A stretch of 45,041 nt of DNA. Source: an uncultured Oscillospiraceae bacterium (GTDB taxonomy: Bacteria; Bacillota; Clostridia; Oscillospirales; Oscillospiraceae). The position numbers and the translations under genes are program-made. The stretch covers positions 1-45,041 of the forward strand of contig CAKTMO010000012.1 in NCBI GenBank assembly GCA_934573935.1. Reading direction: 5' to 3'. Below the pieces are notes generated by a model. It saw only the letters and a program-made list of their open reading frames with translations. It had not been told where the DNA came from and made no database searches. Positions 99-42,518 of this stretch are shown here, one piece after another (positions within the stretch are counted from its first letter, which is position 1; the number at the start of each line of letters is the position of its first letter).

Positions 99-114
99 TG
101 TTCCGCCTCCTTTG

Positions 115-205: not shown

Positions 206-241
206 TGCGCAGCAGCAATTATGCGTATCCGTAACAGGAAA

Positions 242-266
242 GCCGCCCGATTTGAAATCGGGCGGC
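242..266. terminator. Perfect GC-rich palindrome, terminator-like
   Basis: GCCGCCCGATTT and AAATCGGGCGGC form a perfect 12 bp stem around one base. It is followed by only a short T stretch, so it may be a terminator or simply part of the repeat; the same palindrome recurs at 44775-44799. Confidence 0.5.
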
Positions 267-452
267 TTCGTTGCCTCGTAAGTGCTTTCCTCTGGGGGAC
301 AGCCGGCATTGCGATACCGGCACTTTGCGCACACCCCCACGATTTTGACCTCTCCCGCGCCTGAAACGCCCGCCAAACATCCTTTTTACAGGTCAATTTT
401 TGGGCTGATGCGCATCGTCGCCAAACCCGCAAACCATTGCGGCACAACGACT

Positions 453-814
453 TTAAGTCATTTCCGGTTGCTCCACATCCCATTGGATCGGCTCCATCCC
501 CAATGACCGTACTGCGGAGATCACGTGGTCGTCATACTCGCCGTAGGGGCAGCGGATCAGGGTGGGGCAGCAGCCGGTGACGGCTTCGATTTTTTCGCAG
601 CTCTTCTGAATATCCGCCACGATTTGGGAGGAACTCAGGCTGTTGTAGTGGTCGTGGTGGGTGGAATGGCTCATCACCTCGTGCCCCGCGTCGTGAAGGG
701 CCTTTACCGACTCCGGATACTTATCCACCCAGTCGCCCACCACAAAAAAGGTGGTTTTTACGTTGTACTTCGCCAGAATGTCAATGAGATGCTGGGTATC
801 CTCGTTGCCCCACG
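453..814 (-). pseudogene. Polysaccharide deacetylase (NodB domain), C-terminal fragment
   Basis: This is the downstream half of a PdaB-like NodB-family peptidoglycan/polysaccharide deacetylase whose upstream half is at 13441-13643. It begins at WGNEDTQ and contains the metal-binding motif (MSHSTHHDHYNSL), the RCPYGEYDDH motif and QWDVE. The reading frame joins the other half exactly when the intervening element is removed, giving SFDAAWGNEDTQ, the expected motif 1. The end (QWDVEQPEMT) diverges from the family and the last His-containing motif is missing, so the 3' end also appears truncated, next to the ATPase repeat module. The intact gene would have encoded at least 188 residues. Almost certainly inactive. 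Confidence 0.8.
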
Positions 815-834
815 GTGATGCAAAAGTGCGGCAG
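808..834. other. attL of the 12.6 kb integrated element
   Basis: The sequence CCCCACG (808-814), belonging to the deacetylase gene, is followed by the arm GTGATGCAAAAGTGCGGCAG (815-834). The same CCCCACG recurs at 13441-13447 preceded by an inverted copy of the arm (17 of 20 positions match). The recombinase stop codon lies 62 bp inside. This is the arrangement expected for attL of a serine integrase. Confidence 0.75.
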
Positions 835-895
835 TTCTGTAGGAAACGTTTCAAAGTTCCCGTGCCTTTTGCTTCGCTTATAGAAAGTCGTATTG

Positions 896-2443
896 CTACC
901 TTTCCAGCAGTGCGCGGTACTCCTCCGGAAACAGATAGTCGATCTCAATGCGGTTCCCCTCATAGACACGTATCTCGCGAATAGCGGCGGCCACTGTGGG
1001 ACGATCCAGCTCCGTCAGATGACCCAGAGCCAGCAGCTCCTTTACCCACGGCAGCGCCAGCGGATCGTCCTGCGCCGTGTTGCGCAGCTTGTCCCGCTGG
1101 GCCTGTAGTGCCTGCTCCTGTGCGTCATAGTCGGCGCGGTAGCGGAGGTAATCCCCCTTGGAGATCAGCGCGTCCTGATAGTCCTCATAGGCACTCTGGC
1201 GGCGGCGCTGAATGCGCTGCAAGGCGGCTTCCAACTTTTGTGGTTGATCGGTGCCGGAGCGCGGATGCTTTGCCGCGCACTGCTGTGCCAGCTGGCGGAG
1301 GTTTTCCACGCCGGCAATGAGTTGGTTCAAATCATCCAGTATTACCTTCGTCAACACATCGTGGGCAATATAATGCTTGCTGCACACGGACGCGCCGTAG
1401 CGCTTGTATGAGCCGCAAGTGTAGAATGTCTTACCGCCCCAGACGGTCTTGACCATGGCCCGTCCACAATCGCCGCACTTGAGAAAGCCCGCAAAGGGAC
1501 TGACATTCTGCTGAAGATCCGGCATGCGGGCGTTGCTGTTCAACAGGGCCTGTACCCGCTGCCACTGGTCTTTCTCGATGATCGGTTCGTGAGTGCCGGA
1601 TACCACCGTCCACTGAGAACGATCCTTCCGCTTGGCTTTCCCGTGCATTTGGAGTCGGTCATCCCGACCCTGCTCCATATTCCCGATGTACATCTCGTTC
1701 TGCAAAATACGGTGGATGGTGGCATATGTCCAGTAGGTGGTGGCCTCCAGGCGGTGGTTGTTGCGGTATTTTTCGCCGGTAAGCCGCTTGTACTCGCTAG
1801 GGCAGGGGAGACCCTCCTCGTTCAGTTGCCTGGCAATACGGATCTTTCCCATTCCGTTTTCAAACAGGGTAAAGATGCGCCGTACCACCTCCGCCGCAGG
1901 CGGGTCGATGACAAGACGGTTGTGATTCTGCGGGTCCTTGCAGTAGCCGTAGCTGGCGAAGGCTCCGATAAACTCACCCCGCTGCTGCTTGGCGTGGAGG
2001 GAGCTTTTAACTTTTTGGGAAATGTCTCGGGCGTACTGGGTGTTGAACAGGTTCTTCAGCGGCATCATCATGTCATAGGCGCCGCGGTCACTGTCGATGT
2101 TATCCGTGACGGCGATGAACCGCACGCCGTGCTCCGGCAGCCAGCGTTCCAGATAGCGGCCTGTTTCGATGTAGTCGCGGCCGAAGCGGGACAAATCCTT
2201 TACCAGCACACAGCGGATGCGCCCGCGCTCCATATCCCGCAGCATCCGCTGAAAGGCGGGACGCCGAAAATTCGTGCCGGTATAGCCGTCGTCGGCATAG
2301 CACTCCGACACGGTCAACTCAGGATGATGTTCAATATACTCCTCCAGCAGCTTCCGCTGGTTGCCGATGGAATCGCTCTCCATCCGGTCCCCGTCCTCCC
2401 GGGACAGACGGCAGTACAGCGCGGTGGGGATCTTCTGCGCCAT
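896..2443 (-). CDS. Large serine recombinase (integrase of the 12.6 kb element)
   Basis: A 515-residue site-specific recombinase. The N-terminal resolvase domain carries the catalytic serine in ALYCRLSRED (Ser14) and the arginine motif VKDLSRFGRDYIETGRY; a Recombinase domain follows, then a zinc ribbon (CGDCGRAM ... YTCGSYKRYG) and a coiled-coil-rich C-terminal arm that in this family controls attP/attB choice. The start MAQKIPTALYC is chosen because GGAGG lies six bases upstream; a start nine codons earlier lacks one. It ends 62 bp from the left attachment arm and is preceded by a 39-aa ORF. The gene looks intact, so the element may still excise. Family assignment is firm; its action on the sites described here is inference. 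Confidence 0.92.
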   Translation of the reverse strand: MAQKIPTALYCRLSREDGDRMESDSIGNQRKLLEEYIEHHPELTVSECYADDGYTGTNFRRPAFQRMLRDMERGRIRCVLVKDLSRFGRDYIETGRYLERWLPEHGVRFIAVTDNIDSDRGAYDMMMPLKNLFNTQYARDISQKVKSSLHAKQQRGEFIGAFASYGYCKDPQNHNRLVIDPPAAEVVRRIFTLFENGMGKIRIARQLNEEGLPCPSEYKRLTGEKYRNNHRLEATTYWTYATIHRILQNEMYIGNMEQGRDDRLQMHGKAKRKDRSQWTVVSGTHEPIIEKDQWQRVQALLNSNARMPDLQQNVSPFAGFLKCGDCGRAMVKTVWGGKTFYTCGSYKRYGASVCSKHYIAHDVLTKVILDDLNQLIAGVENLRQLAQQCAAKHPRSGTDQPQKLEAALQRIQRRRQSAYEDYQDALISKGDYLRYRADYDAQEQALQAQRDKLRNTAQDDPLALPWVKELLALGHLTELDRPTVAAAIREIRVYEGNRIEIDYLFPEEYRALLER

Positions 2444-2476
2444 GACGCGCCTCCTTTCCTGCGTGGTCAAGCGGCG

Positions 2477-2596
2477 CTACGCCGTCTGTGTGTGGGCGCG
2501 GATCAATTCCAGCACCAGCGCCTCCGCCGTCTGCTGGCCGACAAATTGTCGGGTGACGGTGATCGCCTGCGCAGGCGTTTGCTGAGCGGTTGGCAT
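2477..2596 (-). CDS. Small 39-aa protein upstream of the recombinase
   Basis: Short ORF beginning MPTAQQTPAQAITVTRQFVG with GAGGAGG eight bases before the ATG, ending 33 bp before the recombinase start. No recognisable domain. It is probably cotranscribed with the recombinase; the second recombinase in the window (41052-42518) also has a small ORF directly upstream, although the two peptides are not alike. It could be a directionality or accessory factor, but nothing in the sequence shows that. Confidence 0.55.
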   Translation of the reverse strand: MPTAQQTPAQAITVTRQFVGQQTAEALVLELIRAHTQTA

Positions 2597-2659
2597 AAAC
2601 AGACCTCCTCTTCGGGAATAGTCCATCCTATGCGCCCAGCAGAAGCCGTATGTTTGCCG

Positions 2660-2732
2660 GTATCCATCAAATGGATACGACAGTTCCGGTAAGCTGTTTT
2701 GGCGGCTCTCAAAATTTTTTGAAAAAAATTTT
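2660..2732. promoter_or_regulatory. Two palindromes upstream of the recombinase operon
   Basis: GTATCCAT-CAA-ATGGATAC (2660-2678) is a perfect 8 bp inverted repeat typical of a repressor operator. Next to it CAAAATTTTTT and AAAAAATTTTG (about 2709-2732) form an A/T-tract palindrome. Both lie between the divergent recombinase and surface-protein genes, so they could regulate either. The remaining bases of the 2597-2823 gap show no gene. Confidence 0.45.
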
Positions 2733-2823
2733 GCATTCGGGGTGAGAGTTTTTCTGATTTGATGTACCTATATAGGTGAAAGGCATATTTTCGGACAAAC
2801 CAAAGGGAGGAGGTGCAGCTGAC

Positions 2824-5209
2824 ATGTACGATACCGCGAAACGGGTGGAACTGGTCAAAAAGCGGGTGCGGGAAAACATCCGCCGGAAACAGCGCCGCGG
2901 TGTCTGCGGACTGTCCGCCGTGTGCGTGTTCCTGCTGGCGGCGCTGACGCAGACGACGGGCCTGGTGATCGGCCAGGGCCAGACCGCCGCCCAGGGTGGC
3001 TTTGGCGCCATGCTGCTGCGGGAGGACGCAGGCGGCTATGTGCTGGTGGCCGTGGCGGCCTTCGCTGTATCAGCGGCGCTGACAGCCGTTTGCATGCGGC
3101 TGCATGAGCGGGACAAACGAAAGGAAGAGACAAAGGATGATAATGGTGCGAACAGTACTCGTTCCAGTACCATCATCGGCGGAACGTTCTATGGGTCGGT
3201 CATAAATGGAAAACGAAGCGAGATCAGCGGCGGTACGTTCCATGGAACTGTCACGAACGAAGCGGACAACTGGCCTGGCGGCCACATCGGCACGATCAGC
3301 GGCGGCTCGTTCGATGAAAAACCCTACGGCGCCTTCACCGTGACGTTTGACGTCCGCGGCGGCACGCCGGAGCCGGAGCCGCAGGTGCGCGTCAACGCCC
3401 CTGCCACCGCGCCGACCACTGACCCGACCAAAGACGATCAGCAATTCCTCGGCTGGTATACCGACAGCGAGTGTACGCAGCCCTATGAATTCACGAATAC
3501 TTTCAAGGAATGGATCCTGGCGGACACCACACTCTACGCCCTGTGGTCTGACGATCGCTGCGCCATGACATTCGATTCAAACGGCGGCAGCGAAGTGCAA
3601 CCGCAGCTGCTGCTTATCTCCGGCGACAAGGCCAAAGAGCCGCTGGACCCCACCAAGGAGGGCGCGACGTTCCTCGGCTGGTTCACCCAGAGCGGAAAGC
3701 ACTGGAACTTCACCCACGACCCTGTGACCGAGAACATCACCCTCAAAGCCATGTGGCTTGACGGCGCGGCCCCCACTCCGCCGACGACCGTAGCCGTCAC
3801 CGGCGTGACGCTGGATCAGACCGCCCTGACGCTTGCCAAGGGCGGCAGCCAGCCCCTGACCGCCACCGTTGCACCGGCAGATGCCACCGACAAGACCGTG
3901 TCCTGGTCCAGCACCGACGCTTCGGTGGCATCCGTCAGCAGCGACGGCACGGTCACGGCGGGCAAGGCGGGCATGGCGCTTATCGTCGCCCGCACAGCGG
4001 ACGGCAATTACATTGCGGCCTGCGCCGTCACGGTGCCGGAGGATGCGCCGAAGCCGACCGACCCCGCCAAGCCCGACATTCGGGTCACCGGCTCCTATAC
4101 CTACAACGGCTCCGTGCAGACGGCCGCCGTGACCGGCTATGACCCCGCCGCCATGGATATCACCGGCAACACCGCCACAGACGCGGGCAGCTACACCGTG
4201 AAAGTCACATCCAGGACCGGAAAATGGGCGGACGGCAGCAGCGATACCGTGACCGCGGACTGGCGCATCGGCCAGGCCACACAGAGCGCGCCCACCGGCC
4301 TGGCCGGCGTTGCGCCCACCACCAAGGATGGCAATGACGGCAGGATCACCGGCGTGACCAGCAAAATGGAATACCGCGCGGAAGCGGATACGACTTATGC
4401 GGCCTGCACCGGAACGGAGATTACCGGCCTGTCCGCCGGCAACTACTTCGTCCGCTGCGCGGCGGACAAAAACCATTCCGCCAGCCCTGATGCGGCGGTC
4501 ACAGTGGGCGAGGGCGCTCCCCTTGCGGACTGCACCGTCACCTTCGCCCCCAACGGCGGTGCCGGAAGCATGGAGCCTGTGACCGTCAAGACGGGAATCA
4601 ACTACACCCTGCCCGCCTGCGGCTTCACCGCGCCCGAGGGCCGGGCGTTCAAAGCCTGGGAGATCGGCGGCAGAGAGTACGCCGCGGGCGATCCCTACAC
4701 CGTGACGGAAAATACCACGGTCAAGGCGCTGTGGCAGGACAGTGTCGTTACCTCCACCACCGATTACACACTGCGCTTTGAAACGGGCGGCGGCAGCGTC
4801 ATCGCCAGCGTGCGGGGCACGTACAATACCTATATCGACCTGAGTAAGTACGTTCCCACCTGGCGCGGCCATACCTTTATCGGCTGGTACAGCGACAGCA
4901 GCCTGACGAACCGGATCTCCGGCGTCTATCTGACGGAGGATACCACCGTGTATGCCGCCTGGCGCGCGGACGGCCCCCCCTGATCCCACCGACCCCGCCG
5001 ACGCCGCCGGTTCCAGTACCCCCAGTACCCCCAGCGCCCCCAGCAGCCCCACCGGCCGGACCGACGCCAAGCGGCTGGAATCCCAGCGGACCGGCGACAG
5101 CAGCCCGTTAGGTCTGTGGAGCCTCTCCCTCTGCGCGTCTCTTGCTGGCTGCCTGACGCTGGCCGCATGGCAGATCAGGCGGCGGCGCAGGGAAGCTGAC
5201 CAAAAGTAA
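2824..5209 (+). pseudogene. InlB-repeat/Big2 membrane protein, frameshifted in a C7 tract (phase-variable?)
   Basis: ATG at 2824 follows GGAGGAGG; the first frame stops at 4983 (719 aa). Domains: a basic N-terminus, two hydrophobic segments (about residues 24-50 and 68-92), ISGGTF-type beta repeats, two InlB/Listeria-Bacteroides repeats each ending in a W, a Big2-like domain (VAVTGVTLDQTALTLAKGG), an MBG-like block, and two more InlB repeats. At the C7 run 4974-4980 the frame ends in GPP-stop. Removing one C continues through a Pro/Ser/Thr-rich stalk to TGDSSPLGLW, a transmembrane stretch and RRRRREADQK ending at 5209 (794 aa total). The anchor is therefore out of frame in this assembly. This could be a phase-variable state, a fixed mutation or an error. 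It belongs to the integrated element. Likely cell-envelope adhesion or matrix function, from family knowledge only. Confidence 0.8.
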
Positions 5210-5225
5210 GAACTGCCTGTAAAAA

Positions 5226-5256
5226 GAGAGCCATCGGCAAAATGCCGATGGCTCTC
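5226..5256. terminator. Bidirectional terminator between surface protein and lysR
   Basis: GAGAGCCATCGGC pairs perfectly with GCCGATGGCTCTC around AAAAT. It is preceded by A5 and followed by AATT, and lies between two convergent genes. Confidence 0.75.
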
Positions 5257-5294
5257 AATTGATACCCGATCACATGCCGGAGCGGCAGACGCCC

Positions 5295-6179
5295 TCACTG
5301 ATCCCCGTTTTCCGCCACCCACGCCCGTACATAGTCCACAAACAGGCGGGTGGAGTTGGACAGCGCCTTCTCGTCCTTCACCCCGATGCCGATGGTGCGG
5401 TGGAAGGTCATAGGCGGGCGGCAGGCGGTGACGGGCGCGGGACTGTGCCGCACCATCAGCTCCGGCAGCAGGCTGATGCCCAGCCCCTCCGACACCATGG
5501 ATAAAATCGTCCGGTCCTCCCGCGCCACATACTTCACGTTGGGCCGGATGCCCATCTCGTCAAAGGCCGCCATGATCTCATAGTCGTCGCCCTCCTCTAG
5601 CTGGATGAAGGGCTCCGACGCCAGCAGCTCCTTAGGGAAGGGATCGCTGCCCGCGTAAGGATGGTCGCAGGGCACAATGACCTGCAGTTCGTCCCGATGC
5701 AGGGCGTAGGTCTGCAGCCGCTTCACCGGCGGCAGCCGCAAAAACCCGCAGTCCACCGCGCCGGTGACGATCCAGTTCTCGATCTGGTCATAGAAGTCGC
5801 CGGTGACCACCTCGAACTCAATGTTGGGATACAGTTTGCCGAAGCTCTTCAGAATGCGGGGCAGCCACTGGGCCGACACGCTGGAAAAGGTGGCGATCTT
5901 TACCAGGCCGCTGTCCATGTCCTTCAGCCCCTCCACCGTCTGCATCAGGGCATGATGAGCGGCGCACAGCTTCTCGATTTTGGGCAGCACCGCCCGCCCG
6001 TCCGCCGTCAGTACCACGCCGCCCCGATTGCGGCTGAGCAGCGTGATGCCCAGCTCGCTCTCTAACGACGTGATGGCGTGGCTGATGCCGGACTGGGTAA
6101 AGTTCAGCGCCTCCGCCGCCTTGGTAAACGTGCCGCAGGACACCACCTTCAAAAACACCTGATATTTGGAAATGCTCAT
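5295..6179 (-). CDS. LysR-family transcriptional regulator
   Basis: A 294-residue LysR-type regulator of normal length. The N-terminal winged helix-turn-helix reads MSISKYQVFLKVVSCGTFTK then AAEALNFTQSGISHAITSLE, and the C-terminal periplasmic-binding-like effector domain follows (VKIATFSSVSAQWLPRIL onward, including GLGISLLPELMV). The start at 6179 is the one giving a canonical N-terminus, with AGGTGG upstream; a longer open frame lacks support. The likely target is the divergent gene at 6316 and/or itself, through the T-N11-A palindrome between them. The effector is unknown. Confidence 0.9.
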   Translation of the reverse strand: MSISKYQVFLKVVSCGTFTKAAEALNFTQSGISHAITSLESELGITLLSRNRGGVVLTADGRAVLPKIEKLCAAHHALMQTVEGLKDMDSGLVKIATFSSVSAQWLPRILKSFGKLYPNIEFEVVTGDFYDQIENWIVTGAVDCGFLRLPPVKRLQTYALHRDELQVIVPCDHPYAGSDPFPKELLASEPFIQLEEGDDYEIMAAFDEMGIRPNVKYVAREDRTILSMVSEGLGISLLPELMVRHSPAPVTACRPPMTFHRTIGIGVKDEKALSNSTRLFVDYVRAWVAENGDQ

Positions 6180-6210
6180 AGAAACCACCTCGCTGTTGTC
6201 TATGGCGTCT

Positions 6211-6283
6211 ATTATACATGACGACCGCTCATGAAAGCAATAGCAAAGATGCGTTTTACAAATGTGGGTTTTCGTGCTATGCT
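6211..6283. promoter_or_regulatory. Divergent promoters and LysR box
   Basis: Minus strand: -35 TTGCTT (6240..6235) and -10 TATAAT (6216..6211), 18 bp apart, for the LysR gene. Between them ATGA-N7-TCAT (6218-6232) contains the T-N11-A core of a LysR-type binding site. Plus strand: TTTACA (6255-6260) and TATGCT (6278-6283), 17 bp apart, for the small zinc-ribbon gene. Autoregulation and divergent control are inferred. Confidence 0.6.
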
Positions 6284-6315
6284 GTGTACAGCTTACGAAA
6301 CGGAGGACAAGGACC

Positions 6316-6534
6316 ATGGCCGCGCCTGCAAAAACCATCCGCTGCGCCCTGTGTGGCAGCAGCAGTGTGGTATACCGGAGCGGACGCTACTATTGCGTCT
6401 CCTGCGGCGCTCGCGGCGACCATCCCATGTCCGACGCGGAGTTGGCCCATATCGACCAGGCCCTTTCCCTGGGCGAGAACAGCGTGGAGTTGGCGGCACT
6501 GCGACGCCGCTATCCCCGCCTGCGCGTCAGATAA
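6316..6534 (+). CDS. Small zinc-ribbon protein (72 aa)
   Basis: Starts at an ATG preceded by GGAGG. Residues about 10-32 form a compact zinc ribbon, CALCGSSSVVYRSGRYYCVSCG, resembling TFIIB- or primase-type ribbons; the rest is a short helical tail rich in Arg. Divergent from the LysR gene with a shared control region. Function unknown; nucleic-acid binding is plausible but not shown. A strong hairpin follows it. Confidence 0.65.
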   Translation: MAAPAKTIRCALCGSSSVVYRSGRYYCVSCGARGDHPMSDAELAHIDQALSLGENSVELAALRRRYPRLRVR

Positions 6535-6592
6535 ATCCCCCTATCTGTACCCAATCTTTTCCATAATGAGGGTAATCCTCCCCTCGGACCGC

Positions 6593-6663
6593 GTCCGGCC
6601 ACACCGCCCTGTGGCCGGACGTGGTTTTTGCGTCAGAAAAGGGACAGCCCACCGGCTGTCCCT
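6593..6663 (+). terminator. Two tandem terminator hairpins
   Basis: GTCCGGCCACA/TGTGGCCGGAC (6593-6620) is followed by GTGGTTTTT, and AAAAGGGACAGCC/GGCTGTCCCT (6637-6663) is followed by CTTTT. Together they end the zinc-ribbon transcript and may also stop minus-strand transcription. Confidence 0.65.
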
Positions 6664-6772
6664 CTTTTGCCCGCCCGTAAGCGGGCGTTTCGTCACTTCT
6701 GCGCGTTGTACCACGCCAGCACGGCCTCCAAATGCGCCATCCCTTTCCGCAGGGAAGGGATGGCAAAGCCCG
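6664..6772. other. Short gap with hairpin and possible coding remnant
   Basis: GCCATCCCTT and AAGGGATGGC (6736-6764) form a hairpin behind the hydrolase stop. On the minus strand about 6697-6745 the sequence reads AHLEAVLAWYNAQK and then a stop, which looks like the tail of a deleted gene. This is a weak suggestion. Confidence 0.25.
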
Positions 6773-7369
6773 TCAAGCCCTTGTGATCCAATCATCCAAA
6801 AACCGCATCTGCTCCGCCGTGTGGAACCAGTGGGCTCCCTCCGGCATGACGGTCAGCGCCGCGCCGGTCCGCTGGGCGAAGGCCGATATGGTTTCCGGCG
6901 CGGTCAGCTCGTCGTGCGCCCCATATAAGATCCAGGTGGGCACGCGCCAGGAGATAGGGTGCGCCCGCACATCGCAGAGATACGCCCACGACAGCGTCTC
7001 CCCAAGCTCCGTGGGGATCTCCCCCTTTTCCGCAAGCTCCTCCTCCGTCACATGGGCCCACTGCATCATGTCGCGGATCAGCTTCTCCATGTCCACCACG
7101 GGGGAGATGAAATACGCCCGATCCACCAGCGTTTCATCCAGCGCGGACAACGAGAAAAACGCGCCGATGCTGTTGGCGATCAGAGTAAGGCGGCCGCGGC
7201 CCTGCCGCTGCTGCGCGAAAAACGCCGGAAGTTCTTCCCGCGCCTCCCAGGGCGTCTGCGCGCGGTAATCGAAGCCCACCACCTCGCTGTCGGGGAACAG
7301 GGCCTGATAATGCGCGGCTTCCGCCGCCGTACCGCCCTTCCCGTGAACGTATACCATCAAATCTTTCAT
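6773..7369 (-). CDS. Alpha/beta hydrolase, 198 aa
   Basis: A small single-domain alpha/beta hydrolase. The oxyanion strand MVYVHGKGG is near the start, the nucleophile elbow is ANSIGAF (Ser near residue 95), the acid is in YGAHDELTAPE and the catalytic His is in PEGAHWFH near the C-terminus. The start at 7369 gives a canonical N-terminus MKDLMVYVHGK; an upstream open frame has no family likeness. It lies five bases after the stop of a membrane-protein gene in the same direction. The substrate is unknown; esterase or peptidase activity would fit the fold. Confidence 0.82.
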   Translation of the reverse strand: MKDLMVYVHGKGGTAAEAAHYQALFPDSEVVGFDYRAQTPWEAREELPAFFAQQRQGRGRLTLIANSIGAFFSLSALDETLVDRAYFISPVVDMEKLIRDMMQWAHVTEEELAEKGEIPTELGETLSWAYLCDVRAHPISWRVPTWILYGAHDELTAPETISAFAQRTGAALTVMPEGAHWFHTAEQMRFLDDWITRA

Positions 7370-7374
7370 CTGTC

Positions 7375-7839
7375 TCAACCTTTCCTGAAGGATTGCAGCG
7401 ACACCGTGATATGTGCCGCGCCGAAGACCGCCATCATGATCGCCGCCGGAGGATTGTGCAGCCAGACGGCGGCGCACAGAAAATACAGCACCGGAAACAC
7501 CTCCGGCGGCAGGGGGACGAAGAGGAACGCCCGCCGCAGCAGCTCCGTTTTCCGCCCGCCCGCAAAATACCGCAGCCAGACCAGGTGGTACAGCGCCAGA
7601 AAACCGGCGGCCAGGTACAGCCATACACTGTAAAGGTCCAGCGCCTCACGGCTCACCAGCAGCGTCACCGCCAGCAGATACGCCACGCGGCTGATCTGCT
7701 CCACCGCCTCTACCCAGCGGGTGACCGCCGCCTGCTCCGTCTTTTCCGCCGGCGGAAAGAGGACATAGGCGATGTTGACCGGCATGGGCAGGGCAAAGAT
7801 CACCAGCCCCGCCCAGGAAAAGGACAGCGTCAGATTCAC
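7375..7839 (-). CDS. Polytopic membrane protein of unknown function (154 aa)
   Basis: About four hydrophobic segments (residues about 8-30, 50-68, 75-92 and 105-145). No recognised motif. Its ATG overlaps the stop of the gene upstream (ATGA at 7836-7839), so translation is probably coupled to that ORF, and the alpha/beta hydrolase follows within five bases. The three form one transcription unit. Function is not known. Confidence 0.6.
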   Translation of the reverse strand: MNLTLSFSWAGLVIFALPMPVNIAYVLFPPAEKTEQAAVTRWVEAVEQISRVAYLLAVTLLVSREALDLYSVWLYLAAGFLALYHLVWLRYFAGGRKTELLRRAFLFVPLPPEVFPVLYFLCAAVWLHNPPAAIMMAVFGAAHITVSLQSFRKG

Positions 7840-8747
7840 AGCACAACACCCGCTTTCACGGCGAAAGGCGGCAGCTTCGCAGGCTTTCCGTAAATGGCGG
7901 CCAGCGCACGGAACTCCCGCCGAAAGGCCTCCCGCAGCTCCGTTTCCGTCAGGTGCAGATGGTCGGTGTTGGCCAGAATGGCCAGCCCATAGGAGAAGTA
8001 GATCATGTCCTGATGGAACCGGTGGGCAACCTCCTCACAGTAGCCGAACTCCTCCGCCATCACGCCGATGACCTCCGGCAGCAGAACGCTTCCCGTGCCG
8101 ATGCCCAAAAATGTATGCTTCATCATCGTAAGCCCCTGCGTCAGCGGGAAGAAGCTGACGATCCGCTGCATCACCGGCGGCATGACCTCGATGGGCAGCG
8201 TCGTGCCGGAAAAGATCAGCATGGGGAAATAGAGGATCGACGCAATGACGCTGGCCTGTTTGCTGTCCTTTGCCACGCCGCCCACCAGCATACCGATGGA
8301 CAGAGTCGAGAGCATGGTAAGCGCCCAGCTCCCCAAAAAAGCGAGAAGCGACCCCCGCAGCCGCACGCCCCACAAGAGCGCCGCTGCGGCCAGTGTCACC
8401 AGCGACACGATGCAGTAGACGATGTACATGGACAGCTCGACGCCCAGAACGAACACGGGGCTGACCGGCGTAACACGGAAGCGCTTGAGGATCTTCAGCT
8501 CTCTCAGGCCGGATACCGCCTGGGGCAGACCCATCAGCCCGCCGGCGCAGATGGCGATCGTACCAGCGGCTCCGAAAGACTGCTCCAGAAACGTATAGTC
8601 CGCGTCGTCATAGGCGGGCTTTGTGCCATAGATGATGCCAAGGATGACAAAGACCGCCAGCGGCATAATGACAGCAAAGATGGGCATATTCATGTCCCGC
8701 ACACTCAGCTTCAGCTCCGTTTTCAAAAACGTGAAAAAGCGTTTCAT
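7836..8747 (-). pseudogene. Chimera: ABC-2 permease N-part fused to a TetR-like C-terminus
   Basis: Residues 1 to about 233 are an ABC-2 type exporter permease: MKRFFTFLKTELKLSVRDM, then hydrophobic segments, GLMGLPQAVSGLRELKILKR, IFSGTTLPIEVMPP and FPLTQGLTMMKHTFLG. The normal last membrane segment is absent. The remaining 70 residues (from about VIGVMAEEFGY) are hydrophilic and helical, with HRFHQDMIYFSYGLAILAN and LTETELREAFRREFRALAAI, reminiscent of the ligand domain of a TetR regulator. The simplest reading is an in-frame deletion that joined two neighbouring genes, near 8070. It overlaps the upstream ORF by ATGA. Exporter activity is doubtful. Confidence 0.55.
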
Positions 8748-8926
8748 GCGTCCACCTCCTCGCTTGACAGCTGCAAATAGGCCGCGTCGATGACCTTGAC
8801 CTCGCCGCCGCGAAGCTGCGTTGCCGCCCGCGCAAGACCGGACAGGCGGATCTCCTCCGTTTTGTTCTGCTCAATGTAGTCCTGCATCCGCTGGACAGCT
8901 AAAATCTGTTCCTTCAAGCGCCTCAA
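8744..8926 (-). pseudogene. 60-aa remnant with AraC-like N-terminal helix
   Basis: Residues 9-34, starting AVQRMQDYIEQN and ending LSGLARAA, look like the first helices of an AraC-type DNA-binding domain. They are followed directly by TQLRGGEVKVIDAAYLQLSS, which does not belong to that domain and may be the tail of another protein, perhaps the ABC ATPase expected before the permease. Stop and start overlap with the permease ORF (ATGA). Probably a second deletion fusion. The gap 8927-9074 upstream shows nothing I recognise. Confidence 0.4.
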
Positions 8927-9074
8927 CTCCTTACGGAAGCATTATACCGCGCCGGAAGCGTATCCGCTTGACGTTCCTTGCCATTCTGCGCCGCCCTGCA
9001 TTTCGAAGAGGAGCCGTGCGCTGTATTGCCGCCGCCCGCATATTGCGGCAGATCACAGGAAAGGGCGCAGGCAG

Positions 9075-9473
9075 TTACCCGTGATAGTCGCCGGTCGCGG
9101 GATCCACCACGACATAGGGGACGACCTTGCCGTCGATCTCTACATACACCTGATACACGCCATTGTCCAGCTCCTCGTAGTGATCCGGCGTGAAGCCGTA
9201 GTTGTCCAGCAGGCTTTTTTCAAATTCGGCCTTCCACAAATCATCGGCGGCGGTGTCCCCGTTTGCCGGGGCGTCGCTGTCCTCCGCCGTATCCTCACCG
9301 GACGCGATGTCCCCACCCGCGGAAGGGGAAGCGTCAGCCGCTCCCTCTGTATTTCCCGTAATAGAAGCGTCCTGGCCGCCTCCGCCGGGGAACGGCAGCG
9401 TTCCGCAGGCCGTGAGGGAGAGCAGCAGCATCGCCGCAAGCACAGCGGCGCCAAAAGATTTCCATTTCATCAT
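9075..9473 (-). CDS. Predicted lipoprotein, 132 aa
   Basis: A type II signal peptide (hydrophobic stretch then LLSLTAC, lipid-modified Cys near residue 23) is followed by a low-complexity acidic Gly/Ala/Asp/Ser linker and a C-terminal domain of about 55 residues (DNYGFTPDHYEELDNGVYQV ... DPATGDYHG). The C-terminal block resembles small secreted Clostridia domains, but I cannot name the family. GGAG lies upstream of the start. Another lipoprotein gene is directly upstream in the same direction. Confidence 0.65.
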   Translation of the reverse strand: MMKWKSFGAAVLAAMLLLSLTACGTLPFPGGGGQDASITGNTEGAADASPSAGGDIASGEDTAEDSDAPANGDTAADDLWKAEFEKSLLDNYGFTPDHYEELDNGVYQVYVEIDGKVVPYVVVDPATGDYHG

Positions 9474-9500
9474 TTCATATCTCCGGCTTTGCGCCTTGCA

Positions 9501-10337
9501 TCATCCGCGAAGTCCCGCCGCCTGCATGATGGCCTCCACGGCCGCCACCGGCTCGCTGCCCCAGGTGATCTCAGTGTCCTGGCATCCGGCGCTGTCCAGC
9601 AGCGTGCGGGCCTCACCGGTCAGCAGCTGCTGATAGGCGTCGTCCACCATCTCCAGCTTCTGCAGGAATTCCTCCAGGCCGTCGTTGTTGTTTGCCAGCC
9701 ATGTGGTGGCCGCGTCGCTGATCTCGTCCGCGCCGAGACCCGTGTCCGCGCCCCAGCTCAGCAGCTTGGCCGCCGCCTGCACCGCCGACAGGGAGGAACC
9801 GGCAGTCCCCACCATCACGCCCGTGTCGATCTCGTCCAGAATGGGCAGCGTCAGCACCGGCGCCACATCGGCCGGTGCGTCAGGCGCGTCGGAGGTAGAG
9901 CAGGTCACCCCATCCGCACCGATGGTCACGTACAGCTTCTCCTGGACCGCGTCGTAAAGGAAGGTGCCTTCCCCCAGCAGCGTATCATCCGCCCCCAGCG
10001 CACCGATGGTGAACAGCACCGCGCAGTGATCATTCTGGGAGAGCTCCCTGATGTCCTCGCCTGTGAAGACCCAGTCTCCCGCCTTCAGCAGCGAACCGTC
10101 GGCGTTTTCACACACCTTCGTGAAGCTGCCGCCGTGGAGATAGACAGAGCGCACGTCGTCCCGCGCCAGCTTGAAGTATACGCCGTATTCCCCCGGCTCC
10201 GCGGCGGCGTGATCCGCCCCTGTCCCCGCAGGCGTGTCGTCCTTTACCTCCGTCAGACGGGTGCAGCCCGTCATCAAAACGGCCATCAGCAATACCGCCG
10301 CGGCCAGCAGTGCGATCTTTTTCATATGCTTCATCAT
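9501..10337 (-). CDS. Predicted lipoprotein, 278 aa
   Basis: Signal peptide II with VLMTGC (Cys near residue 25). The mature part is acidic, with beta-rich (YGVYFKLARDDVRSVYLHGG) and helical (GLGADEISDAATTWLANNND) portions; no catalytic motif is evident. The gene ends 27 bp before the second lipoprotein gene, so they are probably cotranscribed and exposed together on the outer face of the membrane. Function unknown. Confidence 0.65.
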   Translation of the reverse strand: MMKHMKKIALLAAAVLLMAVLMTGCTRLTEVKDDTPAGTGADHAAAEPGEYGVYFKLARDDVRSVYLHGGSFTKVCENADGSLLKAGDWVFTGEDIRELSQNDHCAVLFTIGALGADDTLLGEGTFLYDAVQEKLYVTIGADGVTCSTSDAPDAPADVAPVLTLPILDEIDTGVMVGTAGSSLSAVQAAAKLLSWGADTGLGADEISDAATTWLANNNDGLEEFLQKLEMVDDAYQQLLTGEARTLLDSAGCQDTEITWGSEPVAAVEAIMQAAGLRG

Positions 10338-10380
10338 GTCTCCTTTTTCTCAAATCGTTTCTTGTCTTGTTGTTTTCGGT

Positions 10381-10728
10381 CTACTCCGCCTGGTGGAGCT
10401 GCCTCAGATTGTCCAGCACCGCCGGCGTATTTTCCGCGATGCGCCCCAGTGTCCCACACCCGTCCATCTGCGGGCAGTCGGCGCAGGTGTCCAGCCCCTT
10501 CTCGCGGACGCAGTTATGTACGGGGCAGAGCTTGTCGCAGAAGGGCGTTTTCGCGCCATCCACACGGCAGCCGGTGCAGTGGATCATCTCCGGCGTGATG
10601 GTCACGCCGTTGAGCTTTGTCCACAGCGCGGCAGTCTTCTCCCGCAGAGCGTCGTCGTTGGTGACGGTTGCGATCCTGGCGTCGCATGCTGCGCAGTCCA
10701 GCCCGCAGCAGCCGATCAGTTGGTTCAT
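10381..10728 (-). CDS. DUF3795 cysteine-rich protein, 115 aa
   Basis: Begins MNQLIGCCGLDCAACDARIA and carries further Cys pairs (HCTGCRVDG, FCDKLCPVHNC, CADCPQMDGCG), the pattern of the DUF3795 family. The spacing suggests metal or iron-sulphur binding; the biochemical role of the family is not established. GGAGG is positioned correctly before the start at 10728. A longer upstream frame is ignored because it lacks a ribosome-binding site. It precedes the two lipoprotein genes on the same strand. Confidence 0.78.
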   Translation of the reverse strand: MNQLIGCCGLDCAACDARIATVTNDDALREKTAALWTKLNGVTITPEMIHCTGCRVDGAKTPFCDKLCPVHNCVREKGLDTCADCPQMDGCGTLGRIAENTPAVLDNLRQLHQAE

Positions 10729-10797
10729 ATGGCTACCTCCTGTCTGATATGGCTTTTCCATTTGCTTGGTTCTGGGCGCCTGTCATAGTGCCCCCAT

Positions 10798-10941
10798 TCA
10801 TGCTCGTCCTGACTTTCCCGTCCACGCCATCATTCTGCGCAGGCGCTCCCGCATCCCGATGCCGGAGTCGTCCAGAAACAGCGTAAACGCCGCCAGAAGC
10901 GCACTGCCCAGTAAAAACGTTATGATGCGTTTTCCCTTCAT
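10798..10941 (-). CDS. Small single-pass membrane protein (47 aa)
   Basis: MKGKRIITFLLGSALLAAFT opens a single hydrophobic helix followed by a basic tail (GMRERLRRMMAWTGKSGRA). GGGAGG stands about 12 bases before the ATG. No family recognised. It sits just downstream of the duplicated hairpin at 10953-11010, which may be part of its leader. Confidence 0.5.
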   Translation of the reverse strand: MKGKRIITFLLGSALLAAFTLFLDDSGIGMRERLRRMMAWTGKSGRA

Positions 10942-10952
10942 CCTTCGCAGCA

Positions 10953-11010
10953 CCTCCCAGATCATAAACGCGGCACAAGCCGTTTTTGTGGCACGCGCCG
11001 CGCCTGTGCG
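10953..11010 (-). repeat. 58 bp imperfect hairpin repeat, copy A
   Basis: Reads on the plus strand as CCTCCC, then ATAAACGCGGCACAAGCCGT and TTTTGTGGCACGCGCCGCG. A related copy lies at 12432-12490 with many compensated changes, such as GGCACAA against GTACAGG. Each lies just upstream of a minus-strand gene. Confidence 0.6.
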
Positions 11011-11065
11011 CCTAATATTTTCCCGCCGCTTCCGCGGACAGGCTGTTCTGTGTTCGCCCGCCGTG

Positions 11066-11824
11066 TCATTTGGCTGCCCCCTGACTGACGTGGTCCTCCT
11101 GTCTTTTCGGCAGCGTCCTTGTCAGGATCAGGGTATAGCCCACCGTGATCGCCGTCAGAACGAACAGATGAAACAGTCGCTTTTCCTCGGTCAGCCCTGC
11201 CGTATTGGAAAAGGTGCCAAGTGTGTTGATGGCCGCGTGGACGATCATGCAGGGCAGCAGACTTCCGCCGCGGGAAAAGATCGTGACCAGCAAAAAGCCC
11301 ACCGCCACCGCAAAGACGATCTGGCACAGATTGCTGACCGGATCCATGCCGCTGCCGTTGATCAGATTGATCACATGCCCCACGCCAAAGGTGACGCTGG
11401 AGATGACAACGGCCGATTTGATATTGTTCCTTGCGATGGCCGTAAACAGGAATCCCCGAAAGATCAACTCCTCCAAAAACCCGACGCAGAGCATGCACAC
11501 GATGCGGCAAGCCGTTTCCGCCGGTGGATCGTTGACCGCGGCGCCGTTCCAAAGGTTTCCCGTCGCCAAAAGGAAAAGCGGCACATAGTAAAGGAACTGT
11601 CGGGCAGGGACCGGCGACCGGCAGAGCCCGTACCGTTTCTCCAGCCCGTTCCTCCGGATAAAGGCCAAAAGGATCGCCGTCTGCAAAACGCAAAAAGCGG
11701 CGCTGGCAGCATAGGGGATCCCGATGATCTCATTCAGCGGATTCGCCAGCGATTGCAGCACGCAGTACACCACGATCCACACAATGGCAAAGGTCAGCTC
11801 ATTTTTCTCATAGAATGCTTTCAT
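11066..11824 (-). CDS. CPBP-family intramembrane metalloprotease
   Basis: A 252-residue polytopic membrane protein of the CPBP/Abi (CAAX-protease-like) family. The glutamate motif is FLEELIFRGFLF (EExxxR), the second motif is FGVGHVINLING and the third is HAAINTLG; these hold the predicted zinc ligands. Around seven hydrophobic segments. In Gram-positive bacteria relatives protect against bacteriocins or process peptides; the substrate here is unknown. It lies between the cysteine hydrolase and the 47-aa membrane protein, all on the same strand. About 40 bp separate it from the upstream stop. Confidence 0.85.
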   Translation of the reverse strand: MKAFYEKNELTFAIVWIVVYCVLQSLANPLNEIIGIPYAASAAFCVLQTAILLAFIRRNGLEKRYGLCRSPVPARQFLYYVPLFLLATGNLWNGAAVNDPPAETACRIVCMLCVGFLEELIFRGFLFTAIARNNIKSAVVISSVTFGVGHVINLINGSGMDPVSNLCQIVFAVAVGFLLVTIFSRGGSLLPCMIVHAAINTLGTFSNTAGLTEEKRLFHLFVLTAITVGYTLILTRTLPKRQEDHVSQGAAK

Positions 11825-11867
11825 TTCCGATTCCCTTTCCTCCGTAATTGTCCGGTCGCCGCGGCCT

Positions 11868-12362
11868 TTACGCCCCCGTGACCTCGGAAAGCGTCATGAC
11901 GGCGCAGCCCTTGCTCTCGTAATACGCAAGCAGCTCCGGCAGCTTCTTTTTGTCATAGCTGGTGATGCAGTCCGACAGCACGTGAACGGTATAGCCGCTT
12001 TTCGCCATATTATAGCAGGTGGATTTGATGCAGGCCGCGGCGTCGGCGCCGGCCAGATAGAACTCGGTGATGCCGTGCTCCTGAATGAAGGCGGCAAACG
12101 CCTCGCTGGTCAGCGCGCTGCTCTTTACCTTTGTAAAAATATGGTCGGAAACGACCTTCATCTCCGGCACCAGCTCCGCGCCGCGGGTGCCGGGCTTGAA
12201 GGTCCTCGTCCCCGCCGACAGGTTGTTGTGCCGGATGTAGATCACCCACAGATCCATTTCAACGGCCCAGTCGATGGCCGCATTGACGTTTTCGATGATC
12301 TCCCTGTAGTTTTTCGTGATGTCGTTCTGCAGGTCGATCACCACCAGCGCGCAGTTTTTCAT
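11868..12362 (-). CDS. Isochorismatase-like cysteine hydrolase, 164 aa
   Basis: Isochorismatase/nicotinamidase superfamily. The aspartate is in ALVVIDLQNDI, the lysine in FTKVKSSAL and the nucleophilic cysteine in GADAAACIKSTCYNMAKSGY, so the Asp-Lys-Cys triad is complete. Start at 12362 with GGAGGG eight bases upstream; the longer open frame has no likeness to the family. The substrate cannot be told from sequence. Preceded by hairpin repeat copy B. Confidence 0.85.
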   Translation of the reverse strand: MKNCALVVIDLQNDITKNYREIIENVNAAIDWAVEMDLWVIYIRHNNLSAGTRTFKPGTRGAELVPEMKVVSDHIFTKVKSSALTSEAFAAFIQEHGITEFYLAGADAAACIKSTCYNMAKSGYTVHVLSDCITSYDKKKLPELLAYYESKGCAVMTLSEVTGA

Positions 12363-12431
12363 GCTGCATCCCTCCGTAATAAAATGTATTCTGCCTGAAT
12401 CGAATTCCATATCCACGTTTGCCCTCGCAAA

Positions 12432-12490
12432 CCCTCCCGAAACGATAAACGCAGTACAGGCCATTTTTGTGGCATGCACTGCGTCTAAGC
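12432..12490 (-). repeat. 58 bp imperfect hairpin repeat, copy B
   Basis: Second copy of the repeat at 10953-11010 (CCTCCC, then ATAAACGCAGTACAGGCC, ATTTTTGTGGCATGCACTGC). It overlaps the last codons of the KTR protein gene and sits about 70 bp upstream of the cysteine hydrolase. Confidence 0.6.
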
Positions 12491-12676
12491 GTCTGGCATT
12501 TTGCGTTCTTCCATGATTTTTCCGCCCCGAAAACGGATCACGCAGGCATACCGGCACTTGGGACAGAAGAGGGGAAAATCCTCCAGTACCGTGTGGGGCC
12601 GTATCTGCGTCCGCGTCTTGCCGCCGCATTGGGGACAGCGCAGCCAATCCAGCTTCGCTGCAGGACCCTCAGCCAT
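12485..12676 (-). CDS. Cysteine-rich KTR-motif protein, 63 aa
   Basis: Two CxxC knuckles, LRCPQCGGKTRTQI and LFCPKCRYACVI, with the KTR signature between them, match the small cysteine-rich KTR-domain proteins often found beside TetR regulators in Firmicutes. Its start at 12676 overlaps the end of the TetR gene by eight bases, so the two are translationally coupled. Zinc binding is very likely; role unknown. Confidence 0.75.
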   Translation of the reverse strand: MAEGPAAKLDWLRCPQCGGKTRTQIRPHTVLEDFPLFCPKCRYACVIRFRGGKIMEERKMPDA

Positions 12677-13310
12677 GCCGCACCGCCTCCGTTTCCGTCC
12701 CCGCCAGCGCGCGAAAGGCCCCGTCCCGATCAAACGTGCCGTCGGCGAACCCTGGAATCTCCTTGATGGCCTTGTAGATGCTGATGCTGAACCCCGTCAG
12801 GATCCGGCCGATCTCCTGATCGGAATAGCCGCAGTCGCCGGTGACGATCAGCGTGGACAGGCTGTGCACCACGAACCACAGATCGCGGAAATACAGGTCG
12901 GCCTCCGCCGCGGTGATGCGATAGATGTCCATCAGCGTCGGGTGCACCAGCGCCTGCAAATGCGCCATGGACTTCACGGCGCTGTACTCCGGCGTCCGCG
13001 TCAGAAACAGCATCCGGTAAAGCTCCGGCTCCTCCCGCGCAAACCGGATATACTGCTTCCCCACGCCCAGAAAGGGAATCTCCTCCTGCAAGCCCTGGCG
13101 CGTATAGCCGTCATAGACCGCCACCGCGGCGGCGTAGACCGCCCGCCTCACATCGTCCATAGAGCCAAAGCCGGTGAAGATCGGCCGCGTAGAGGTGCCC
13201 AGCGCGTCGGCGATGGTCTTTGCCGTCAGCGCGTCCAGTCCCTTGCTCCGCACCACCTCCAGCGCCGCCGCCGCCATCTCTTCTCGGGTAAACTTATTCT
13301 TCGGCGCCAT
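12669..13310 (-). CDS. TetR/AcrR-family repressor
   Basis: A 213-residue regulator. Residues about 8-55 form the TetR helix-turn-helix (FTREEMAAAALEVVRSKGLD, LTAKTIADALGTSTRPIFTG), and the rest is a helical ligand domain. AAGGAGG precedes the ATG. A strong sigma-A promoter with a palindromic operator lies upstream, indicating autoregulation. Cotranscribed with the KTR protein. It is the gene nearest to the right attachment site of the element. Ligand unknown. Confidence 0.88.
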   Translation of the reverse strand: MAPKNKFTREEMAAAALEVVRSKGLDALTAKTIADALGTSTRPIFTGFGSMDDVRRAVYAAAVAVYDGYTRQGLQEEIPFLGVGKQYIRFAREEPELYRMLFLTRTPEYSAVKSMAHLQALVHPTLMDIYRITAAEADLYFRDLWFVVHSLSTLIVTGDCGYSDQEIGRILTGFSISIYKAIKEIPGFADGTFDRDGAFRALAGTETEAVRHG

Positions 13311-13334
13311 CGTCTGCCCTCCTTAAAATGCATT

Positions 13335-13395
13335 AGGCGATGCACATCATACGATGCGCATCGCCTATTATATGCACGAACCACCCGTTTGTCAA
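13335..13395 (-). promoter_or_regulatory. tetR promoter and operator
   Basis: Minus strand: -35 TTGACA (13395..13390) and -10 TATAAT (13372..13367) are 17 bp apart, a near-consensus promoter. Directly after the -10 comes the palindrome AGGCGATGC-N14-GCATCGCCT (13335-13366), perfect over 9 bp per arm. A TetR dimer bound there would block initiation. Confidence 0.8.
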
Positions 13396-13421
13396 TAGGG
13401 AAGTGCCCGATCTCGCACCTC

Positions 13422-13447
13422 CTGCCGCACTTTCCCCTCACCCCACG
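13422..13447. other. attR of the 12.6 kb element
   Basis: The arm CTGCCGCACTTTCCCCTCAC (13422-13441) is an inverted copy of the left arm at 815-834, followed by CCCACG and the intact deacetylase sequence CGGCGTCG. Joining the right arm, the core CCCACG and the left arm gives a 46 bp imperfect palindrome, the form expected of a serine-integrase attP, with CA as the central dinucleotide. Confidence 0.72.
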
Positions 13448-13643
13448 CGGCGTCGAAGGAGATGGAGCACAGCTTTTCCTTCCGCTCCACCGAATAGATG
13501 GGCAGCTGCCGCGTGGTGGCCGCCGCCGCGCGGGACGCGGGGTACAGCGTCACATAAAAAATACCCGCTGCCGCCGCGATGGTGCACAGCAGCACCGCCA
13601 GACGGCGGCGCAGCAGCAGTACCCGAACCCGATTTTCTTTCAT
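13441..13643 (-). pseudogene. Polysaccharide deacetylase, N-terminal fragment
   Basis: Upstream half of the gene whose other half is at 453-814. It begins with a basic N-terminus and a signal anchor (RLAVLLCTIAAAAGIFYVTL), then SVERKEKLCSISFDAAWG, where the frame passes into the element and ends 16 codons later at 13392. The predicted protein was a membrane-anchored extracytoplasmic deacetylase. It is divergent from the surface-protein gene at 13807. Confidence 0.78.
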
Positions 13644-13766
13644 ACCATCCCCGTCCTTTCTGCCCCAGCCTATGCGCCGCCCGCCCCAAAAAGACCCCAT
13701 CGGCCCTGTCCTGGCCCCACTTTGGTCTCTTTGGTGCCCTTTTCGGGTCGATTGATGTCGCCCGCC

Positions 13767-26773: not shown

Positions 26774-26778
26774 CTGGC

Positions 26779-41051: not shown

Positions 41052-42518
41052 TTACACCGCCCAGATGATCTCTGCGCTGTCCTTTGCCACCTCGATGCGG
41101 CGGATGAACTGGGCGGCCACGGCCTTTTTCTCCTCGAAGGACAGTTCGCTGAACACCAGTTTTTCCGGCAGCGGAACGCGGCCTGCTTCACGCCGCTGGG
41201 CCTGCTGGAGCACTTCGCGCTCCTTTTCGATCTTTCCCAGCGCTTTCTGCAGATAGGACGCGGGCAGATCCTCACTCTCGGCAAAGGCATCCATCAGACG
41301 CTCGGCGCGGCGATCCAGCTCCAGCAACCGCTGGGTATAGCTGTCCTCCTCCGGCTTCGGCACAACGGGCTCCCGGGGACACTGCGCCAGCAGCTTTTCA
41401 ATCTCCGTCTGCACCACCGTTTCCAGCTCTGCCAGCTTGACGTGGATGGCGGCGTCGCAGCGGTTCATATTATACCGCCCGCTGCACGCCAGATAGCGAT
41501 AGGACTTGTCCACCACAACGGACAGGCTGTAGCCGCACTTGGCGCACTTCAGTAGGCCGGAGAGCCATGTGTGCTTGCCCTTGCCGCTGTTACCTACCTG
41601 ACGGTTGTGAGCCAGCTTCGCCTGCACCGCCAGAAACAGCGGCGATGGCACGATGCCCACGCTGTTCAGCACAGACGCCCGATGGTTCTCGGTCCTGGTG
41701 TACTTCCGCGCGTTGGCCTCCCGCTTGCCCACCAGCAGCACGCCGTGTACACCGTCAAAGGCCTCAGGCGGGCTGGTGACCTCCACGCCCTGCCCCAGAT
41801 AGTGGAGCCGCACCTGCTCGTCCGCCATCACATAGGCCGGATTGTGCAGCAGGCGGGACAGCGTCACGTTGTCCCATGTAGCACGCTTGGGGGCGGGGAT
41901 GCCCTCGGCGGTCAGCTTGCGGGCCAGCAGTCCTAACGACATGCCCTCCGCGGCGTACTCTTGAAAGATCCGCTGCACCACCGCCGCCTTGTCGTTGGGG
42001 ATAAGGGACGGCGCCTCACGGCCATCCTTACCGCGGGCCCGGCCATTGTCGAAGCCGTAGGGCGCCGGGCCGCCGGGCCATGCACCCAGCGCCGCGCGGC
42101 GGTAGTAGTTGTCCCGCACGCGCTCGGCGGTGGTCTCCCGCTCCAACTGAGCGAACACCATGATGATGTGCAGCATGGCCCGCCCCATAGGCGTCTTGGT
42201 GTCGAAGTTCTCGTTGACCGACACGAACTCCACATGGTGCTCCTGCAGCACCTCCCATAGTTGGCCGAAGTCTGCCACACTGCGGGAGAACCTGTCCAGC
42301 CGGTAGACATACAGCGTGCCGATGCGGTCGGCGCGGATATCCTTCATCAGCTGCTGGAATGCGGGGCGCTCGGTGTTCTTGCCGGAGTAGCCGGCATCCT
42401 TGTAGACCCGCAGCTCCCCGCCGCCCGCCGTGCGGCGGCACAGGTCGATCTGCCCCGCGATGGACAGGCTGTCCTTTTTCTCCACGGACTGGCGGGCGTA
42501 TACCGCGTCCGTCTTCAT
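41052..42518 (-). CDS. Second large serine recombinase (488 aa)
   Basis: Resolvase domain with the catalytic serine in VYARQSVEKKDS (Ser11), YKDAGYSGKNTERPAFQQLM and YVYRLDRFSRSVADFGQLWE, then MVFAQLERETTAERV. A Recombinase domain follows, then a zinc ribbon (LLKCAKCGYSLSVVV, LACSGRYNMNRCD) and a coiled-coil arm. Its start codon overlaps the stop of a 43-aa ORF (ATGA). Unlike the integrase at 896-2443 it is followed by two further genes rather than an attachment site, so its site may lie upstream. Appears intact. Confidence 0.92.
   Translation of the reverse strand: MKTDAVYARQSVEKKDSLSIAGQIDLCRRTAGGGELRVYKDAGYSGKNTERPAFQQLMKDIRADRIGTLYVYRLDRFSRSVADFGQLWEVLQEHHVEFVSVNENFDTKTPMGRAMLHIIMVFAQLERETTAERVRDNYYRRAALGAWPGGPAPYGFDNGRARGKDGREAPSLIPNDKAAVVQRIFQEYAAEGMSLGLLARKLTAEGIPAPKRATWDNVTLSRLLHNPAYVMADEQVRLHYLGQGVEVTSPPEAFDGVHGVLLVGKREANARKYTRTENHRASVLNSVGIVPSPLFLAVQAKLAHNRQVGNSGKGKHTWLSGLLKCAKCGYSLSVVVDKSYRYLACSGRYNMNRCDAAIHVKLAELETVVQTEIEKLLAQCPREPVVPKPEEDSYTQRLLELDRRAERLMDAFAESEDLPASYLQKALGKIEKEREVLQQAQRREAGRVPLPEKLVFSELSFEEKKAVAAQFIRRIEVAKDSAEIIWAV

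What the first reader, a model, noticed from the sequence alone, without database searches (positions are those of the whole stretch)
808..13447. A 12.6 kb serine-integrase element with reconstructable attP and attB in a conserved deacetylase motif
Seen directly: the two deacetylase halves rejoin in frame as SFDAAWGNEDTQ when the intervening DNA and one CCCCACG are removed. The element ends are 20 bp arms inverted to each other (17/20). Joined through CCCACG they give a 46 bp imperfect palindrome with a non-palindromic centre CA. A large serine recombinase ends 62 bp inside the left arm. Serine integrases use such attP palindromes with a central dinucleotide (established). The target, the first NodB motif, is highly conserved, so related sites should exist in many genomes (inference).
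Basis: partly seen in the sequence, partly recalled or inferred. Interest (0 to 1): 0.75.

Follow-up and report, generated by a model that had tools for sequence, protein, structure and literature searches.

The report
Mobile element splitting a spore-wall gene
A piece of mobile DNA cuts a gut bacterium's spore-wall gene in two at a catalytic motif, and related elements sit in this gene and in a second spore-wall gene of many gut bacteria, probably to be cut back out when the cell makes a spore.

Summary
A 12.6 kb element (core CCCCACG at 808-814 and 13441-13447) splits a PdaB-like sporulation deacetylase in frame; the rebuilt attP is a 46 bp imperfect palindrome centred on CA, with a large serine recombinase at one end. 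A database protein 99% identical over 180 residues has the uninterrupted site. Of 81 related recombinases (80 fetched loci plus the window), 31 lie with pieces of pdaB, 43 with pieces of amidase genes (CwlD or a relative) and 7 with neither; where arms are recognisable, both genes are cut at a catalytic motif on the same dinucleotide. A sigma-E-like promoter core precedes the recombinase in 24 of 73 loci (about 2 in shuffles), and a small ORF of one loose motif in 70 of 73. Split pdaB evolves under strong purifying selection; 18 of 20 hosts have SpoIVA. The window's pdaB is cut a second time, at QWDV, where two relatives carry a different serine recombinase. Best reading: a skin-like intervening element, excised in the sporulating mother cell. 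Excision and its timing are inferred, not shown. My paper searches listed no report of interrupted pdaB or cwlD.

The parts
13438..13644 (-). N-terminal piece of the pdaB-like deacetylase (ATG at 13644) up to SFDAAWG
   Evidence: translation; the short piece alone has no Pfam hit
13441..13447 (.). right core CCCCACG; presumed crossover CA at 13444-13445 (first two bases of the Trp codon on the minus strand)
13422..13441 (.). right element arm
808..814 (.). left core CCCCACG; presumed crossover CA at 811-812
815..834 (.). left element arm, inverted match 17 of 20 to the right arm
471..812 (-). middle piece of the deacetylase (WGNEDTQ to QWDV), PF01522 E 5e-33
896..2443 (-). large serine recombinase, 515 aa
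2477..2596 (-). small ORF MPTAQQTPAQ... just upstream of the recombinase; candidate directionality factor (inference)
   Evidence: sequence; loose motif present in 70 of 73 loci
2625..2651 (-). sigma-E-like promoter core ATA-N16-CATAGGAT ahead of the small ORF and recombinase
2824..13310 (.). cargo: list-bact-repeat/Big_2 protein, LysR regulator, ABC-2 permease, CPBP protease-like, isochorismatase-like, TetR regulator and ORFs without hits
471..478 (.). second interruption (site 3): core TCCACATC, i.e. GATGTGGA on the coding strand; 1-470 is presumably the end of another element
41055..42518 (-). second serine recombinase, 488 aa, 55% identical to the site-3 recombinase of L083; belonging to the window's second element is not shown

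Best explanation
A non-phage, skin-like gene-intervening element. A serine integrase inserted it by attP x attB crossover at a CA/TG dinucleotide in the first NodB motif of pdaB. During sporulation, mother-cell sigma E would transcribe both pdaB and the small-ORF/recombinase operon; the recombinase, probably with the small protein as directionality factor, excises the circle and rejoins pdaB in a cell whose DNA is not inherited. In this genome a second element at QWDV would have to leave too, by a different recombinase. Shown by sequence: insertion, att sites, recurrence, second cut, and an uninterrupted homologous protein. Supported by statistics: promoter class and selection. Inferred: excision, its timing, the small protein's role.
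For: In-frame junction and attP. Uninterrupted P0121, 99% over 180 residues. 31 of 81 recombinases with pdaB pieces, 43 with amidase pieces (grouping). Constant arm register in 80 of 87 scored halves. Sigma-E-like core in 24 of 73 upstream regions against 1.94 (max 6) in 200 shuffles, 3 of 73 on the reverse strand and 27 of 769 control regions; also before 8 of 23 pdaB N-pieces. SpoIVA in 18 of 20 hosts. dN/dS 0.033-0.115 in the 7 of 11 pairs that could be estimated. In 80 Oscillospiraceae genomes all 4 with a site-1 split carry the clade recombinase on the same contig; none of 41 with full-length pdaB carries it. Five of the elements are only 3.3-3.9 kb.
Against: No reads, RNA or circle were seen. 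49 of 73 loci lack the strict promoter core; the pattern was written from a recalled consensus after I had seen the alignment, and related loci are not independent. O. valericigenes, with the same double split, is reported non-sporulating although it has the sporulation sigma factors (PMC3558957). Some recombinases are much younger in place than their pdaB (L032/L040, L022/L055), so those copies have recently moved. G044 has the clade recombinase with site 1 intact, and 7 of 81 loci show neither target.
Confidence: 0.65

Rival explanations
1. An ordinary site-specific mobile element. The integrase uses conserved catalytic codons as attB because they are stable targets; loss of pdaB or cwlD is tolerated and there is no programmed excision.
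For: Near-identical recombinases sit in different genes (L014 and L016, L025 and L058; tree) and some have moved recently, so mobility is real. Large serine recombinases commonly target conserved genes (PMC10083194, passages).
Against: Promoter class upstream, purifying selection on split genes with comparable recombinase and pdaB divergence in window/L002, L043/L051 and L010/L069, no phage or conjugation family among the 15 cargo ORFs scanned, and both targets being sporulation wall genes.
Confidence: 0.2
2. In this genome the gene is dead: two insertions have broken pdaB and what is seen is a decaying remnant, whatever holds in relatives.
For: Two cuts in one gene; the third piece is outside the window and was not seen; no whole genome is held; O. 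valericigenes with the same state is reported non-sporulating.
Against: Window/L002 dN/dS of the middle piece is 0.064; proteins ending at the same QWDV site are found at 76-99% identity (P0121, P0122, P0123, P0125, P0128, P0133, P0140), so that state is old and the piece is kept.
Confidence: 0.15

Closest known systems
skin elements in sigK (B. subtilis, C. difficile)
   Same: Element splits a sporulation gene; serine recombinase; mother-cell control of the recombinase (B. subtilis) or of the directionality factor (C. difficile) (PMC5025042 and PMC517825, passages)
   Different: Different target genes; prophage-like; C. difficile skin recombinase is constitutive, here the promoter-like core is ahead of the recombinase operon
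gin in gerE (B. cereus)
   Same: Gene-intervening element without phage genes, serine recombinase plus extra factor GirX (PMC5595907, passages)
   Different: 28.6 kb with three recombinases, one target gene; here one clade in two gene families, elements down to 3.3 kb
SPbeta in spsM, vfbin in spoVFB, yin in yabG
   Same: Elements splitting sporulation genes (PMC10747680, passages; PMC4191935, listing with abstract start)
   Different: Prophage or prophage-like; other genes
Large serine recombinases with conserved gene targets
   Same: Domain make-up, attP palindrome and central dinucleotide, conserved coding target (PMC10083194, passages)
   Different: No sporulation link was seen in the passages shown

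Membership tests
Large serine integrase element | Resolvase N-terminal, Recombinase and zinc-ribbon domains | tested here: met
Large serine integrase element | attP/attB sharing a short core with a central dinucleotide and inverted arms | tested here: met
Large serine integrase element | recombination activity | not testable with these tools
   no experiment possible
Sporulation gene-intervening element (skin-like) | splits a sporulation gene in frame | tested here: met
   the PdaB model is below its cut-off because the piece is incomplete
Sporulation gene-intervening element (skin-like) | mother-cell promoter on recombinase or directionality factor | tested here: inconclusive
   24 of 73 loci match a sigma-E-like core, window included; no transcription data
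Sporulation gene-intervening element (skin-like) | excision during sporulation restores the gene | not testable with these tools
   P0121 shows an uninterrupted gene but not how it arose
Prophage or conjugative element | phage structural or conjugation genes | tested here: not met
   none among 15 cargo ORFs scanned, some of them probably not real genes, not all ORFs scanned; one 48% viral-contig hit for the recombinase; four partial phage-record matches of 3-10% of the query; no plasmid match

The most novel reading that the evidence does not exclude
A widespread programmed DNA-splicing system of gut Clostridia: elements of one serine-integrase clade sit like DNA introns in catalytic motifs of spore-cortex genes (pdaB, cwlD) under mother-cell promoters, and pdaB can carry two such introns at once, removed by different recombinase families, so that spore-wall maturation waits on successive DNA excisions.
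Probability: 0.55. Interest if true: 0.88.

Novelty: new variant of a known kind. Interest (0 to 1): 0.77.

Why it matters
Developmental gene splitting is known for a few sporulation genes (sigK, spsM, spoVFB, gerE, yabG in the papers seen). Here one integrase clade recurs in two cortex-related genes across Oscillospiraceae, Lachnospiraceae and relatives, and by my reading about one in five classifiable pdaB genes in 80 Oscillospiraceae genomes is split (11 of 52). If excision is programmed, it would help explain gut bacteria that have sporulation genes but are not seen to sporulate, and it offers a natural set of integrases with two kinds of attB. It also means that truncated pdaB and cwlD annotations need not be pseudogenes.

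Tried and rejected
Prophage or plasmid origin: no plasmid match, four partial phage-record matches covering 3-10% of the query, one 48% viral-contig hit. A dipeptidase as third target (flanks of L033, L053, L074): rejected, because both scored arms in those loci lie at amidase pieces. The CwlD survey of 60 genomes was uninformative, since the split lies at about profile position 7. An arm-like stretch near 42.7 kb was looked at by eye and dropped. The tree has long branches (L081, L080, L067, L071) whose place is unsure. The pdaB/amidase/neither grouping was made by hand from motif hits; 24 of 81 loci have no half with a scored arm, among them L067, whose amidase lies about 10 kb away. The small-ORF motif test is loose and has no chance control.

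Full report
Observation. The joined protein's best curated family is PdaB (TIGR02764, E 5e-38, 131 bits against a cut-off of 237); the match covers profile positions 1-129 of 191, the rest is missing. The presumed crossover is on the first two bases of the Trp codon of SFDAAWGN.

Empty site. Among the 120 homologues listed of 7843, P0121 is 99% identical over the 180-residue query, shares the 19 residues upstream seen in the window translation and is uninterrupted at site 1. It too ends early, in QWDVELPEMT. P0124 and P0126 (89 and 86%) are full length. Whether P0121 comes from a strain without the element or from excised DNA cannot be told.

Recurrence. A scan with the 16-row recombinase alignment found 398 confirmed relatives in genome contigs and kept the best 80; nothing is said here of the other 318. 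Motif and tblastn searches put pdaB pieces in 30 of these loci plus the window and amidase pieces in 43; 7 show neither (labels as used). Ten amidase C-pieces were tested: six match CwlD at E 6e-50 to 1.3e-59, all below the curated cut-off because the first residues are cut off; four match it at only 1e-19 to 1e-25, three of which also hit SPOR-domain-type models. A half with an arm scoring at least 9 of 14 against CCGCAAGTTACCGC is found in 57 of 81 loci (chance about 5% per 40-mer); 80 of 87 such halves lie exactly 5 nt before or 7 nt after the Trp or His codon. That puts the centre on TG in pdaB and CA in the amidase, the same dinucleotide read on opposite strands; 28 loci have both halves with arms. 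On the tree the two labels are clustered but mixed (12 and 11 changes; shuffled means 25 and 27), and near-identical recombinases occur in both genes.

Unbiased sample. Of 80 Oscillospiraceae genomes 76 match the PdaB model at E 1e-12. By my reading of the listed rows (the list was cut at its weak end), 41 have a full-length gene, 3 are cut at site 1, 7 end at the site-3 position and 1 at both; 24 matching genomes were not classified (only weaker paralogue-like rows, or cut by contig ends). For the 7, the missing piece was not looked for. Recombinases of the clade (600 bits or more; the next scores 439) are in 6 of 80: the 4 with site-1 splits, G044 with site 1 intact, and G080 without a PdaB match. 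Pieces were checked: both in G047 (about 57 kb apart) and G075, only the C-piece in 19 kb of G073.

Second sites. In O. valericigenes (L006, L082) and L004 (L083) pdaB is also cut at QWDV, with a recombinase of another family between the pieces; in L029 (L084) it is cut at GGW with yet another, and in L013 the two pieces lie on different contigs, one beside such a recombinase. The window's middle piece ends at the QWDV site. The window's other recombinase (41-42.5 kb) is 55% identical to that of L083 and 39% to that of L082; whether it serves the window's second element is unknown.

Regulation. The pattern ATA-N15-17-CATANNNT uses the ATA -35 motif reported for sigma E of C. difficile (PMC3789822, passages); its -10 letters and spacing are recalled, and it was written after I had seen the alignment. 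It occurs in 24 of 73 upstream regions against 1.94 (sd 1.3, max 6) in 200 shuffles, 3 of 73 on the reverse strand and 27 of 769 upstream regions of other ORFs. Six loci with under 300 bases upstream and two with recombinases cut at the start (L073, L075) were left out. It also precedes 8 of 23 pdaB N-pieces, with starts chosen by rule; the window's N-piece was not among the 8, but has CATAGGCT at 13669-13676 by eye. B. subtilis ybaN, named with pdaB in TIGR02764, binds SpoIIID (PMC517825, passages); cwlD and three polysaccharide deacetylases are sigma-E genes in C. difficile (PMC3789822, passages).

Constraint. dN/dS of pdaB pieces is 0.033-0.115 in 7 of 11 pairs; in 4 pairs dS was saturated. 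Recombinase and pdaB dS are alike in window/L002 (0.56 and 0.81), L043/L051 (1.07 and 1.15), L010/L069 (1.15 and 1.21) and window/L006 (1.63 and 1.75). They differ in L032/L040 and L022/L055, where the recombinase is younger, and in L007/L010, where it is more diverged. So some elements seem to have stayed with their gene while others moved; constraint from before an insertion cannot be separated in every pair.

Hosts. SpoIVA is in 18 of 20 host genomes. O. valericigenes is reported non-sporulating but with Spo0A and the sporulation sigma factors (PMC3558957, passages).

Literature. Searches combining pdaB, cwlD, polysaccharide deacetylase, intervening, recombinase and sporulation terms listed no paper on an interrupted pdaB or cwlD; I read listings and passages only, and most subscription papers and preprints are not held.

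Noticed in passing
window 1-340 and 44700-45041: The two window ends are inverted, similar copies of one repeat ahead of an ATPase-like gene start, so the window is probably a contig that broke at repeats.
   Followed up: partly
window 40055-42646: Second serine recombinase with a small ORF and a sigma-E-like TCATGTT-N14-CATAGGCT (by eye) upstream; followed by a small gene and a GHKL-like gene that appears to run into S-layer-like sequence near 40.1 kb. Its target gene was not found.
   Followed up: partly
pdaB loci, e.g. window, L002, L010, L069 versus L004, L006, L022, L055: Elements sit in pdaB in both orientations relative to the gene; a flip of the central dinucleotide in a near-palindromic attP could explain it (inference).
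   Followed up: partly
L018 and L020 (one genome): Identical recombinases in two different amidase genes of one genome.
   Followed up: no
window 24581-32827: Chromosomal repair and tRNA genes mutL, mutS, miaB and uvrC next to the split gene's side of the contig.
   Followed up: no
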